Assembly (NCBI RefSeq): GCF_000203815.1
Contig: NW_004457737.1
Span: 930,001 to 994,000 of the forward strand
Direction: 5' to 3'
DNA length: 64,000 bases
From: Cavenderia fasciculata
Taxonomy: Eukaryota > Evosea > Eumycetozoa > Acytosteliales > Cavenderiaceae
Within the stretch, counting starts at the first letter, position 1; each line of letters begins with the position of its first letter. Positions 41,613 to 51,207 of the stretch are shown piece after piece. The position numbers and the translations under genes were made by a program. The notes under the pieces are model-generated. The model was not told where the DNA came from. It was given only the letters and a program-made list of their open reading frames with translations, and made no database searches.

Positions 41613-43025
41613 ATGAAGCTATTAATTCTTCTAGTCATTGTATCAAGTTTTGTGGTATCGGTATCAAGTGAATTGTTATCAATCACTGGATTATTGGGTG
41701 GATTGCTTGGTGGTTCTTCTTCATCTTCATCATCTTCATCGTCCTCTTCATCTTCATCTTCTTCTTCATCCTCTTCATCAACATCAACTGGAGGTGGGTC
41801 TGGACTTATTATTGATATCGATATTGGACCAATTAGTTTAGAGTTATTCTTGGCAATTGGTAATCAAACAAATAGAAATCTATTCACCGCTTGGACACAT
41901 GAATACAACAAAACTTATACAGCTGGAGAGTTTCAAAAGAGATATAAGCTATATGTTAGTAATCTCTTGTTTGTCAACAACTATGCAACTCAAAACCCCG
42001 ATAGTCAAATGGAACTTGGAACCAATGAATTTGCTGATCTATCACTTCAAGAATTTGTTGATACAAGATTGACTAAATTCAACATGTCTCAAGCTCCCAT
42101 TGATAATCAAACATCATCATCATCATCACCACCAAACTCTCAAAGTGCATCGACATCGAGACAGATTCTATCAACCATGCTCAATGAAAAAGGAGTACTA
42201 GATTGGAGAGATTTGGATGAAGTTAGTCGAGTCAAAAATCAAGGTAGTTGTGGTTCATCATATGCTTTCGCTGTAACCTCTGCAATTGAATCTATGTACC
42301 TGAGATCATTAGATAAACCACGTCTCGATCTTTCTGAACAAGATTTGGTTGATTGTCGAGATATGGGCAATAACGGGTGTGGTGGTGGTTGGATGCATAC
42401 CTCTTATCAACAAATCATAAATAATCAAGGAATATCATTTACAACTGATAACCCATACGTAGGCAATAGGGCCTTCAAATTGTGCAACAAACTAACAAAA
42501 GCAACCAAAATTGCAACATACACTATAGTGGCCAAGGGTGAGAACAACCTCTACAATCACTTGGCTGTAGCACCAATTTCATCTACATTTGATGCAACCT
42601 CTAGGTATGTATAATATAAAAGAAGAAGAAGATCACACCTCTCTACAAATATTAATGAATGTGTGTCATTCAAACAAAACAATATTGTAGAGAATTCCAG
42701 TTATACAAGAGTGGAATATTTTCATCTGCAACTTGTAATAAGCTAGCCCCATCTCATGCAGTACTTGTTATTGGACATGGTCCAGGATATTGGATAATTA
42801 AAAATTCGTTTGGAGGTATGTATATTTAGACATTGGTAGATCAGTCCTCAGTACAGTATACTAATCTTTAATCTATCCATTTTCATAATGAATTAATTTA
42901 TTTTACCTGTCACAGTCAACTGGGGTGAACAAGGTGGATATTTCAAGATGGCAAGGAATACTGACGATCAATGTGGTATTGCTAGTTATGCAAGTTATCC
43001 AAAATTCGGAGGTGCACCCGCATAA
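41613..43025 (+). CDS. Papain-family (C1A) protein with Ser in place of the catalytic Cys
   Basis: Three exons, 41613-42604, 42691-42815 and 42916-43025, give 408 residues. Order: signal peptide (MKLLILLVIVSSFVVSVSS), SITGLLGGLLGG, a poly-Ser tract of about 25, an I29 propeptide (WTHEYNKTYTAGEFQKRY and LGTNEFADLSLQEF), a second Ser-rich linker, then the papain domain. The active-site block is NQGSCGSSYAFA where cathepsins have QGxCGSCWAFS, so Cys is Ser and Trp is Tyr. The oxyanion Gln, catalytic His (SHAVLVIGHG) and Asn (IIKNSFGVNWGE) remain, giving a Ser-His-Asn set as in sponge silicateins and Plasmodium SERA5. Disulphide Cys residues (CGGGW, CNK, CGIAS) are kept. It may be an active serine-type enzyme, a binding protein or a structural protein. 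The frame is intact. Confidence 0.88.
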
Positions 43026-43157
43026 TCAATTATCAGAATGAAAGAGAGAGAGAAAGATATTTTAATAATAATAATAATAGCAAGAGTGAATTTTATTTAA
43101 CTTATTAATAATAAATAAAATATGAAATAATACATTCGGATCGGATCAGAATTAAAT

Positions 43158-43488
43158 TTAATGACATGATCCACAACCATTACCACCACCTAATAAGCCT
43201 CCAAGTAATCCACCAACAATGCCAGTAGTGACTCCAACGACACCACCAACAACTCCAACAGCTCCTCCTAAAAGACCACCAACAAGATTTCCATTACATC
43301 CTCCACATGCAACTTGATTCGATGATTGGAGTGACATTGATGATGATGAGGAGAATGATGATTTACTGATAGAGGACATCTTGGCAGTTCCCATTGATTG
43401 AAGTGAGGCTGGTATTAAAATAATTAGTTAATGAGAAGAAGGATTGAAATGATTATTTTTAGTTATTATATTTACCAAGGATAGTCAT
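43158..43488 (-). CDS. HssA/B-family small Gly/Ser-rich protein, copy 1
   Basis: A 13-base first exon (43488-43476: MTIL plus one base) is joined to 43408-43158, giving 87 residues that begin MTILASLQSMGTAKMSSIS. A Ser-rich stretch, ACGGCNGN, and a Gly/Val-rich hydrophobic block ending VGGLLGGLLGGGNGCGSCH follow. This is the HssA/2C/7E (sigN-like) layout: tiny proteins expressed in multicellular development in dictyostelids, function unknown. It is convergent with the papain-like gene (132 bases between ends). The GLLGGLLGG motif also occurs just after the signal peptide of that neighbour. The protein is nearly identical to the copies at 51437 and 53188. Confidence 0.9.
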
Positions 43489-43856
43489 TTAAATTGTTTA
43501 GAGAGAGAAGATTATTAAATAGAATAAATTAATATTTGATGATTTGATAATGATCAAAACTACGAGTATTTATAGTCAATGTTTTCTTCTTTTCCAACTC
43601 TTTTTTATATCCAGTATTGATCCAGTTCAGTTGTTCCAACCAACATACTACATAAGTAATAATACATCAGATTGACTAAATTGAACATTAATTATTAGAA
43701 TGATTGACCAACTTTTTAAAACAGTCAATATTTTGATTTGTTTAGAAAACCAAACCACTAAAACGGTAGAATTGACACAGTTTTTAGTAACCCACCTGTC
43801 TTTAAAAATTCTATCTATATCTATTTTGGATTTTATTTTTTTGAAGGATTCATTCA
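43489..43856 (-). promoter_or_regulatory. Conserved 5' region of HssA copy 1
   Basis: About 370 bases are retained with high similarity upstream of all three HssA copies. AAAACTACGAGTATTTATA at about 43556-43574 is identical in each and is placed like a core promoter, 70-90 bases before the ATG. GTTAGTAACCCACCTGTC-like blocks further out are also kept. Confidence 0.6.
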
Positions 43857-43961
43857 TTAAGGACATAACCTATTCCATAATCTCTTTATATGATTATAGA
43901 TTTCTTAAAAGACTTCAACTATTCCGGTTCCTGCTCTGGGTTGGTTGATTGATTGAATGGG
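43857..43961 (-). pseudogene. Truncated relic of the small HssA-related gene (compare 52133-52409)
   Basis: This matches the 3' half of the gene at 52133-52409: TTAAGGAC, CTATTCCATAA, GATTATA, CAACTATTCC and GTTCCTGCTC occur in the same order and orientation. The frame is disrupted and the 5' half with its 13-base exon is missing beyond about 43961. It marks the end of the first duplicated unit. Confidence 0.7.
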
Positions 43962-49070: not shown

Positions 49071-49174
49071 TGGGATTGAAAGTAATGTAAATTTATCTAA
49101 TTCTATCACTGCAGTCCACCCTACCAACCCATTGCTTTCTCAATTGTTTTTGCCAAAATAATAAATAAATAATA

Positions 49175-49205
<31 letters not shown>

Positions 49206-49641
49206 ATTCATCCCCAACAAATCCTTTTTTAAAAAGTAACCTTGATAATAAATTAATAAAGGAGTCTAATTTTAATTTTTTTATTTCTTTTTTTTTTTTT
49301 ACAACAATAATATTCCATCCATACGCCCACTCATTCTTTCAAAGATGCTATTTACCTACACAACATACATATCTTTTTAAATATGTATGAGAAAGGTATA
49401 TATAATCAAACATGTCAATTTAAATACGATCAAATTCAACTGGCTTGGCTCCTCTCTTGTTAACAACAAGACACAAGTTCGCCGAACATTCTGAACAAAC
49501 AATTTGTTCTTTCTGTTTCGAACCGGTTGTTTAGCTTATTAATTAATTTATTTATTCGTTCACCATGGGTTTCATTGTAAGTGCAATTTGACAAATCATT
49601 TTATATGATCTTTTATTTTATTATTACTAATACAAAACAAA
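49071..49641. other. Intergenic region upstream of the second papain-like gene
   Basis: AT-rich, with an AAAT tandem run at about 49160-49205. It ends in the shared upstream element. No gene was seen. Confidence 0.6.
49471..49555 (+). promoter_or_regulatory. Shared upstream element of papain-like genes, copy 2
   Basis: ACACAAGTTCGCCGAACATT, CTGAACAAACAA and TTTCGAACCGGTTGTTTAGC repeat the order seen at 41441-41530, at a similar distance before the ATG. Confidence 0.5.
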
Positions 49642-51207
49642 ATGAATCTTTCAATAACTCTAGTTATTCTTTGTGTGATTGTATCAAGTTTTGTGGTATC
49701 AAGTGAATTGTTATCAATCACTGGATTATTGGGTGGAATGCTTGGTGGTTCTTCTTCATCTTCATCATCATCATCGTCGTCGTCATCTTCTTCTTCATCA
49801 TTATCAATATCATCATCATCTTCATCGTCATCCTCGATATCATCCTCGACATCGACATCGTCCTCGATATCATCTTCATCTTCATCGATATCAACATCAA
49901 CATCAACATCACATCAACATCAACTGGTGGATCAGGAACTATCATTGACAAAGATATTGGACCAATTAGTTTAGAATTATACTTGGCAATTCGTAATCAA
50001 ACCAACCGAAATCTATTCTCTGATTGGACACATGAATACAACAAGTCATACACATCTGGAGAGTTTCAAAAGAGATATAAGCTATATGTTAGTAATCTAT
50101 TGTTTGTCAACAACTATGCAACTCAAAACCCAGATAGTGAAATGGAACTTGGAACCAATGAATTTGCTGATCTATCACTTCAAGAATTCATCGATCTTAA
50201 ATTGTCTAAATTCAACATGTCTGAAATCACTGATGACCTATTTACCCAACACCAACCAGACAACAATCAAACCTCCTCTTCAACCTCCTCATCTGAATCA
50301 TCTGAATCATCCTCATTATCCCCATCCTCATCTTCATATAACAGTAACACCTCCAGATGTATTTCAAGCAACTGTGGATTGGGTAAAGAAAAGAAAAGTT
50401 AGTAGAGTCAAAGATCAAGGAAATTGTGGGGCATCATATGCTTTTGGAGCCACCGGTGCTATTGAATCCATGTACATGATAAAATTTAATTCGAATCTAG
50501 ACCTCTCTGAACAAAACTTTGTAGATTGCCAAACGTTTGGCAATAAAGGATGTGAAGGTGGTTGTGCGCACAATGCTTATCATCAAGTCTTAAAAGGTCA
50601 CGGAGTATCACATTCGAATATGTATCCTTATGTCGGATACAAGAACACAGCAATATGCTCGGCAGTCGGTCTGACTATCAACATTAGAAGTTACGCAATG
50701 ACACTCGGTAGAAAAGAGTTTGGCTTGACCAAAGCATTACTAGATACCCCTGTATCAGCTTCATTTGATGCAAGTTCTAGGTATGTATATAATAAAATTA
50801 AAGAAAACATGAAAATGGAAATTAACAAAAATATATTTTATATATCCTATTTTATAAATATAGAGAATTCCAATTGTACGTGAGAGGAATATTTTCATCA
50901 CCAACTTGTGATAAACTGAAACCTTCTCACTCGGTACTTGTTACTGGATATCAACCAGGTGCTTGGTTAATCAAGAATTCATTTGGAGGTATGTACGGTA
51001 CAATATAAACAAACTAAATACCTCATACTTTGATATCAAGATGTCAACGATGACTAATCTAATCTAACTCAACTCTCTTTTATCTTTATTTAATTTATAG
51101 TCAACTGGGGTGAAGCTGGATTCTTCAGGTTGGCAAGAAATACCGATGATAAATGTGGTATTGCCAGTTTTGCTAGTTATCCAGAATTTAATGGTGTTAT
51201 ACCATAA
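49642..51207 (+). pseudogene. Second Ser-type papain-like gene, with two frame shifts in low-complexity DNA
   Basis: The gene has the same three-exon structure as the copy at 41613: 49642-50780, 50864-50988 and 51101-51207. Signal peptide and SITGLLGGMLGG are in one frame, the I29 propeptide (WTHEYNKSYTSGEFQKRY) in another, and the mature domain is back in the first. The changes fall at about 49905-49915, in a CATCAA-type repeat, and about 50325-50345, in a Ser-codon repeat. Each lies in slippage-prone DNA, and together they restore frame. The mature domain reads DQGNCGASYAFG, again with Ser for Cys and Tyr for Trp, and keeps His (SHSVLVTGY) and Asn (LIKNSFGVNWGE). The mature domain has no lesion, so decay is recent, or the frame shifts are assembly errors. 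Confidence 0.75.

What the first reader, a model, noticed from the sequence alone, without database searches (positions are those of the whole stretch)
41613..51207. Two papain-family proteins with Ser at the catalytic Cys position (silicatein/SERA-like)
Both copies read CG-S/A-S-YAF where active papain-like enzymes have CGSCWAF, so the nucleophile is Ser and the next Trp is Tyr. The oxyanion Gln, catalytic His and Asn, propeptide and disulphide Cys residues are kept. Keeping the rest of the triad in both diverged copies argues against simple decay of a protease. The same Cys-to-Ser change (and, from memory, Trp-to-Tyr) is found in sponge silicateins, which polymerise silica next to Ser-rich tracts, and Cys-to-Ser in Plasmodium SERA5. 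A dictyostelid version with long poly-Ser tracts would be an independent case.
Basis: partly seen in the sequence, partly recalled or inferred. Interest (0 to 1): 0.78.

Follow-up and report, generated by a model that had tools for sequence, protein, structure and literature searches.

The report
Amoeba cathepsin copies lacking catalytic cysteine
A social amoeba carries two neighbouring copies of a secreted protein-cutting enzyme gene in which the key active-site cysteine has become serine; they are offshoots of the amoeba's own enzyme family, resemble sponge silica proteins by coincidence, and one copy looks like a preserved but probably non-cutting protein.

Summary
The window is from Cavenderia fasciculata (DFA_ proteins). 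Copy A (three exons, 41613..43025) is an intact signal / poly-Ser / I29 / C1A protein with Ser216 at the catalytic Cys. Copy B (49642..51207) has an intact mature domain reading CGASYAF, but its frame breaks twice upstream.

Both belong to a five-gene family. The other three (C, D, E) have Cys (CGSCYAF) and the same poly-Ser tract. So Tyr is ancestral, not part of a Ser switch, and the Ser tract is unrelated to it. Cys25Ser and Trp177Phe (papain numbers) set A and B apart. Silicateins form a separate, supported group: convergence, not kinship.

A keeps 46 of 48 positions invariant in 13 Cys-bearing relatives; the two changes are the catalytic Cys and Trp177. Its mature domain evolves at omega about 0.3, like the Cys copies and significantly below 1. 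Most likely A is a retained secreted pseudopeptidase that binds peptides or inhibitors. Silica or ester chemistry has no support. Of 30 readable C1A loci in this genome, 5 lack the Cys (A, B and three others), so such loss is not exceptional here.

The parts
41613..43025 (+). Copy A: join(41613..42604, 42691..42815, 42916..43025), 408 aa; signal peptide (by eye), Ser tract, I29 propeptide, C1A domain with Ser216 for the catalytic Cys
41715..41789 (+). Ser/Thr tract of copy A (25 residues), between signal and propeptide; shared with Cys-bearing paralogues
   Evidence: coordinates counted from the translation
41883..42056 (+). I29 propeptide domain of copy A (residues 91-148)
42258..42260 (+). 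Copy A: TCA (Ser216) at the place of the catalytic Cys
42809..42811 (+). Copy A: TTT (Phe371) at the place of papain Trp177
49642..50780 (+). Copy B first exon region: signal and Ser tract (frame 1), propeptide (frame 0), start of mature domain (frame 1); reading frame broken twice as assembled
50341..51207 (+). Copy B mature C1A domain, join(50341..50780, 50864..50988, 51101..51207), open throughout
50434..50436 (+). Copy B: TCA (Ser) at the place of the catalytic Cys
50982..50984 (+). Copy B: TTT (Phe) at the place of papain Trp177
43158..43488 (-). hssA/7E/2C-like small gene downstream of copy A (13-nt first exon read by eye); part of the duplicated unit
   Evidence: (PF05710, 75.4 bits)
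51437..51767 (-). hssA/7E/2C-like small gene downstream of copy B; 93% identical to the first over 300 nt

Best explanation
Copy A encodes a secreted procathepsin-like pseudopeptidase. It arose by duplication within a Cavenderia branch of a dictyostelid C1A subfamily whose Cys-bearing members read CGSCYAF. Shown: the catalytic Cys became Ser and Trp177 became Phe, while the oxyanion Gln, His, Asn, glycine-rich loop and propeptide stayed. Shown: the mature domain has been under purifying selection about as strong as in the Cys-bearing sisters. Inferred: it is made, secreted and matured by other peptidases, keeps a groove that binds peptides or inhibitors, and does not hydrolyse them at a useful rate. 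It would act as a binder or decoy, for example taking up cystatin-type or I29-type inhibitors or shielding substrates, and so tune the Cys-bearing sisters C and D. Copy B is a diverged relative on the same path whose present reading frame is broken or mis-sequenced.
For: Family and integrity. Of 48 alignment positions invariant in 13 Cys-bearing CY-type relatives, A changes 2, both at the active site. Tip omega for A is 0.31, different from 1 at p 0.0075 on the best topology and 0.29 with p 0.0035 on another; A+B tips do not differ from the Cys paralogues (p 0.61 and 0.62). Precedents: SERA5 is inactive with Ser and active when Cys is put in (PMC4671257, abstract and passages); the inactive cathepsin B paralogue TrCB1.6 is highly expressed and binds cystatin (PMC7054455, abstract).
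Against: No expression, protein or binding data were available; the binding role is by analogy. The omega test covers 206 codons and five genes, with NG86 dS of 0.61 to 1.02. The A+B pairing is not firmly resolved: best codon topology by only 1.4 log units; in 40% of bootstrap trees; AU p 0.36, so not rejected. If A and B are not sisters, part of A's branch may predate the Ser. The A+B stem omega was estimated at 6.3 or 0.98 by topology, not significantly different from the rest, so relaxed or positive selection at the time of the change is not excluded. B, and E (with Cys), both have broken pro-regions, so the family is losing genes.
Confidence: 0.6

Rival explanations
1. Decay in progress: after duplication the Cys was lost because the copies were not needed; B is already a pseudogene and A will follow. 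No present function.
For: B's frame is broken twice. Cys-bearing E has lost part of its propeptide with a change of frame. L031, another Ser-bearing locus, looks truncated. Five of 30 readable C1A loci lack the Cys.
Against: A is open over 408 codons with intact introns, keeps 46 of 48 invariant positions, and its tip omega is well below 1 (p 0.0075). B's mature part also shows omega 0.28 (p 2e-5), so constraint acted for most of its history.
Confidence: 0.24
2. A is a working serine-type hydrolase or transferase on the papain fold, using Ser216-His353-Asn369 and the oxyanion Gln on esters, thioesters or activated peptides.
For: Ser, His, Asn and Gln are all present in A and B. Silicateins with the same set are described as silica-condensing and hydrolytic, with loss of catalysis when Ser is Ala (passage in PMC4671257).
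Against: The authors of PMC4671257 know of no Cys-to-Ser change in a cysteine peptidase that keeps significant activity. Trp177, held by the 13 Cys-bearing CY-type relatives, is Phe in A and B.
Confidence: 0.1
3. A is a silicatein-like mineral-forming protein, with the poly-Ser tract templating silica or another mineral.
For: Motif likeness: B's CGASYAF is the motif of 18 of the 22 best silicatein-search hits P0220-P0241.
Against: Separate group in the tree. The Ser tract lies before the propeptide and is shared by Cys-bearing C, D and E. The role of silicatein itself is disputed (PMC10282587, section 9). That dictyostelids are not known to form silica is recalled, not searched beyond.
Confidence: 0.02
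4. The Ser codons are assembly or sequencing errors.
For: B has frame breaks that could be errors.
Against: Two copies that differ at many sites both carry TCA, which is two base changes from TGT or TGC, and both also carry Phe at 177.
Confidence: 0.02

Closest known systems
Dictyostelid CGSCY-type C1A proteins (C. fasciculata DFA_07161; P. violaceum CYY_007830, CYY_005450, CYY_008205; D. discoideum P0132 and P0137)
   Same: Same CY-type clade in both trees; I29 + C1A layout where scanned (P0132); Tyr after the nucleophile. DFA_07161 is 63% identical to A and has the same Ser tract.
   Different: They keep the catalytic Cys and the Trp of NSWG (P0137 lacks the His in its deposited sequence). 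P0132 carries CBM49 domains between propeptide and mature domain.
Sponge silicateins
   Same: Ser at the nucleophile with Tyr after it in 20 of the 22 best hits P0220-P0241, CGASYAF in 18 of them; Gln, His and Asn kept in all 22.
   Different: Separate 100/100 group; Trp177 kept in 19 of those 22; nothing ties A to silica.
Plasmodium SERA5 (Ser-type SERA)
   Same: Papain-like domain with Ser for Cys, beside Cys-type paralogues; inactive, non-enzymatic role (PMC4671257, abstract and passages).
   Different: No SERA sequence was compared here; kinship not tested.
TrCB1.6, an inactive cathepsin B paralogue of Trichobilharzia regenti
   Same: Inactive through change of the catalytic Cys, next to active paralogues; binds cystatin (PMC7054455, abstract).
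   Different: Cathepsin B type, Gly rather than Ser, animal parasite.
Cunninghamella echinulata P0106 and P0118
   Same: Same CY-type clade; catalytic Cys replaced while the other 47 of 48 invariant positions are kept.
   Different: Gln and His rather than Ser; 226 and 232 aa with no I29 match.

Membership tests
C1A fold (Pfam PF00112 with I29) | Match to PF00112 above cut-off, with an I29 propeptide | tested here: met
   A 195.3 bits and I29 50.5 bits; B mature part 188.9 bits, its propeptide not scanned
Active C1A cysteine peptidase | Catalytic Cys before an aromatic residue | tested here: not met
   Ser in A and B
Active C1A cysteine peptidase | Oxyanion Gln, catalytic His and Asn | tested here: met
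Silicatein | Falls in the silicatein clade | tested here: not met
   Rows labelled silicatein lie on one side of a 100/100 branch, Cavenderia genes elsewhere; four unlabelled rows (P0242, P0243, P0247, P0250) lie inside that side
Silicatein | Ser nucleophile followed by Tyr, with His and Asn | tested here: met
   A reads CGSSYAF, B CGASYAF
Silicatein | Occurs in and shapes silica filaments or spicules | not testable with these tools
   No protein or mineral data
SERA (Plasmodium) | Shared descent with SERA papain-like domains | not tested
   No SERA sequence was fetched; only passages of one paper were read
Pseudopeptidase (non-catalytic C1A paralogue) | Catalytic residue lost while gene and fold stay under constraint | tested here: met
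   For A. For B the intact frame is not met as assembled
Pseudopeptidase (non-catalytic C1A paralogue) | No catalytic turnover | not testable with these tools
   Needs an assay

The most novel reading that the evidence does not exclude
Papain-like proteins with Tyr instead of Trp after the nucleophile are a repeated gateway out of cysteine proteolysis. In dictyostelids, fungi and sponges the Cys is lost repeatedly on this background (Ser, Gln, His, Gly, Ala), and in C. fasciculata and sponges it became Ser with the triad kept. A would then be an independent natural test of whether a papain Ser-His-Asn site can do new chemistry.
Probability: 0.15. Interest if true: 0.65.

Novelty: new member of a known kind. 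Interest (0 to 1): 0.37.

Why it matters
It is a clean, small example of a secreted protease family giving rise to Ser-type copies beside intact Cys sisters, in an amoeba related to a tractable model. That makes the question 'what does a papain-like protein do once its cysteine is serine' testable by gene removal and recombinant assays. It also shows that the silicatein active-site motif can appear outside sponges with no sign of silica, so the motif alone should not be used to annotate silicateins. The deposited model of copy B (DFA_03112) leaves out the active site, and A, C and E were not among the listed hits of the protein searches, so proteome surveys would probably miss the case.

Tried and rejected
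Silicatein kinship: rejected by the trees. Poly-Ser tract as part of a mineral-forming device: rejected, as the Cys paralogues share it. Tyr as part of the Ser switch: rejected, ancestral in the family. CfaD (a secreted cathepsin-like growth regulator of D. discoideum) as the relevant relative: considered from memory; only a search listing was seen and its sequence was not compared. Splicing that would skip the propeptide in B: considered by eye only, no convincing in-frame pair of sites found, not tested exhaustively. RNA families at gathering score and tRNAs in the window: none. Structure prediction and fold search were not run: the spliced protein is not given letter for letter by the DNA, so it fell outside what that tool says it accepts.

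Tyr context and Cys loss within this genome: 4 of 9 Tyr-type against 1 of 21 Trp-type loci, Fisher p 0.019, but 0.052 if A and B count once; kept only as a lead. Among 336 database proteins (337 held, P0009 dropped because its active site is spliced out) 37 of 41 Cys-less ones have Tyr against 22 of 295 with Cys; these were gathered with Tyr-type queries, so the count is biased. Position 177 is not Trp in 6 of 41 Cys-less proteins (one more unaligned) and in 10 of 295 with Cys, so Trp177 loss is not specific to Cys loss. The chance figure of 0.013 for both of A's changes falling at the active site assumed six active-site columns; His was not in fact among the 48 because P0137 has a gap there, and the test was made after seeing the result.

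Corrected on the way: the first scan for active sites read one strand of the genome loci and missed minus-strand genes, repeated on both strands; the first tree held two rows read on the wrong strand (L004, L006), repeated; the first exon joins for C, D and E were wrong and were corrected. YN00 failed for 8 of 10 pairs, so only NG86 values are quoted.
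Full report
What is there. The window is from the dictyostelid Cavenderia fasciculata: it lies in a 2,485,436-base contig of a 31.0 Mb genome of 21 contigs, and a protein of copy B comes back as DFA_03112 [Cavenderia fasciculata] on a contig of that length. Copy A is a three-exon gene, join(41613..42604, 42691..42815, 42916..43025), 408 residues, with GT..AG introns of 86 and 100 nt. By eye it has a signal peptide; then come a 25-residue Ser/Thr tract, an I29 propeptide (50.5 bits) and a Peptidase_C1 domain (195.3 bits). 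The motif is QGSCGSSYAF. Ser216 is encoded by TCA at 42258-42260; Gln, His and Asn are present. Copy B has a Peptidase_C1 mature domain (188.9 bits) with QGNCGASYAF and the same three supporting residues. But its signal/Ser tract, propeptide and mature domain lie in frames 1, 0 and 1. As assembled B is therefore broken, or mis-sequenced, upstream of the mature domain. The deposited model of B (P0009, 255 aa) starts inside the propeptide and runs from GKEKK to NLSEQ, leaving out the active-site stretch.

The family. Searches of the genome with A's protein and with Pfam PF00112 find three close paralogues: C (contig C5 near 713 kb, L014), D (C7 near 809 kb, L042, the same protein as DFA_07161 by eye) and E (C1 near 856 kb, minus strand, L039). 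C and D are intact; E has lost part of its propeptide with a change of frame. All three read CGSCYAF and NSWG; A reads CGSSYAF and B CGASYAF, both NSFG. Mature-domain identities among the five run from 51 to 63%. The Ser tract is 25, 23, 20 and 18 residues in A, C, D and E. Hence the Tyr after the nucleophile and the poly-Ser tract are family features that do not depend on Cys-to-Ser.

Wider kin. A profile search (best 120 of 1335 listed) adds P. violaceum and D. discoideum proteins that also read CGSCY; one D. discoideum relative carries CBM49 domains. Among the 219 proteins then held, the nucleophile and next residue were CW 195, CY 16, SW 2, GY 2, SY 1, GW 1, QY 1, HY 1; the one SY is the mis-spliced P0009, an alignment artefact. 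No other dictyostelid Ser-type protein was listed, but A, C and E themselves were not listed either, so this absence is weak. In a tree of 66 domains with the nucleophile, the next residue and position 177 masked, the five Cavenderia genes group at 100/99. They lie in a 17-row CY-type clade at 100/100 that also holds five P. violaceum and D. discoideum proteins and seven other sequences, two of them from the fungus Cunninghamella. The 24 rows labelled silicatein or silicatein-like lie elsewhere on one side of a 100/100 branch; four unlabelled rows (P0242, P0243, P0247, P0250) fall inside that side. Copy B scores no better against the solved silicatein (142 bits) than against cathepsins (up to 153.5 bits). 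The shared motif is therefore convergence. CY-type proteins are found beside the SY ones on the sponge side too (P0237 Aulosaccus, P0242 Amphimedon, unnamed P0239), which suggests but does not prove that Trp-to-Tyr came before Cys-to-Ser in both lineages.

Preservation or decay. Of 48 alignment positions invariant in 13 Cys-bearing CY-type members, A changes two: the catalytic Cys and Trp177. B changes six. The Cunninghamella proteins P0118 (His for Cys) and P0106 (Gln for Cys) change only the Cys. Each Cys-bearing member, held out, changed 0 to 6 of 48 to 54 positions: P0119 six, P0137 and P0043 two each, P0015 one, the other nine none. So B's count alone is not unusual; what is special in A, P0106 and P0118 is where the changes fall. 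A codon branch model on 206 codons of the five mature domains gives tip omegas of 0.31 (A) and 0.28 (B) against 0.26 for the rest. Fixing A at 1 gives p 0.0075, fixing B at 1 p 2.3e-5, and A+B tips do not differ from the rest (p 0.61). A second topology gives 0.0035, 4e-5 and 0.62. These tests average over branches and cannot see a very recent loss, which B's frame breaks may be; the A+B stem omega (6.3 or 0.98 by topology) is not significantly raised but is poorly determined.

One change or two. A and B lie in a duplicated unit with a small downstream gene of the hssA/7E/2C kind (PF05710; its 13-nt first exon, read by eye, fits the description in PMC6198379). These genes are 93% identical over 300 nt and flanking pieces up to 98%. 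The propeptide DNA is 90.5% identical (dS 0.30), yet the mature domains have dS 0.86. The unit is thus a mosaic, most simply explained by gene conversion of its outer parts (inference). The shared TCA TAT codons, NSFGVNWGE and the duplicated unit favour a single Cys-to-Ser event. The codon likelihood puts A+B first by only 1.4 units; the masked protein tree leaves it open (in 40% of bootstrap trees; AU p 0.36, not rejected).

How common is it in this genome. Of 31 C1A loci examined the nucleophile position could be read in 30: Cys in 25, Ser in 4 (A, B, L006, L031), Ala in 1 (L038). L006 (CLSSYAF, I29 plus C1A) has lost the oxyanion Gln and falls outside the CY-type clade, though its branch is long and its place unsure. 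L031 (CSSSWAF) looks truncated. Cys-less C1A genes thus recur in C. fasciculata.

Mechanism. SERA5, with Ser at this place, showed no peptidase activity, gained it with Cys, tolerated Ser-to-Ala in the parasite, and yet is indispensable (PMC4671257, abstract and passages). Its authors know of no Cys-to-Ser change in a cysteine peptidase that keeps significant activity. An inactive cathepsin B paralogue binds cystatin and is highly expressed (PMC7054455, abstract). Even silicatein's enzymatic role is disputed (PMC10282587, section 9). The best reading of A is a secreted binder on a papain fold, acting beside the Cys-bearing sisters C and D. What it binds is inference. hssA-like genes are developmentally regulated in D. 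discoideum (PMC6198379, passages); whether that applies to these neighbours is unknown. The literature searches made listed no title about these genes; most listed papers were not opened, and subscription papers are not held.

Noticed in passing
L006 (C21:2488033-2488614, minus strand): A further I29 + C1A gene with Ser at the nucleophile (CLSSYAF); oxyanion Gln lost, His and Asn kept; outside the A-E clade.
   Followed up: partly
L038 (C5:1728534-1729252): C1A domain with Ala at the nucleophile (CSAAYAF) behind an N-terminal region that looks CAP-like by eye; Pfam found no domain in the one N-terminal exon reading given.
   Followed up: partly
L031 (C18:870448-870921): C1A locus with Ser at the nucleophile but Trp kept (CSSSWAF); looks truncated.
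   Followed up: partly
P0106, P0118 (Cunninghamella echinulata): CY-type papain-like proteins with Gln or His in place of the catalytic Cys and the other 47 of 48 invariant positions kept.
   Followed up: partly
P0053, P0056 (Dictyostelium firmibasis, D. cf. discoideum): Procathepsin-like proteins with Gly at the nucleophile and Phe at position 177.
   Followed up: no
41443-43955 and 49472-52234: Duplicated unit with a strongly diverged island over the mature domain, between outer parts mostly 80-98% identical, pointing to gene conversion that spares the mature domain.
   Followed up: partly
35917-39057: RNA polymerase Rpb2-type gene, 50-59% GC over about 36000-39000 in a roughly 30-40% GC neighbourhood.
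   Followed up: partly
49642-51207: Deposited model DFA_03112 leaves out the active-site stretch of copy B and starts inside the propeptide.
   Followed up: yes
L039 (paralogue E): Cys-bearing paralogue with much of the propeptide missing and the frame changed; likely a pseudogene.
   Followed up: partly
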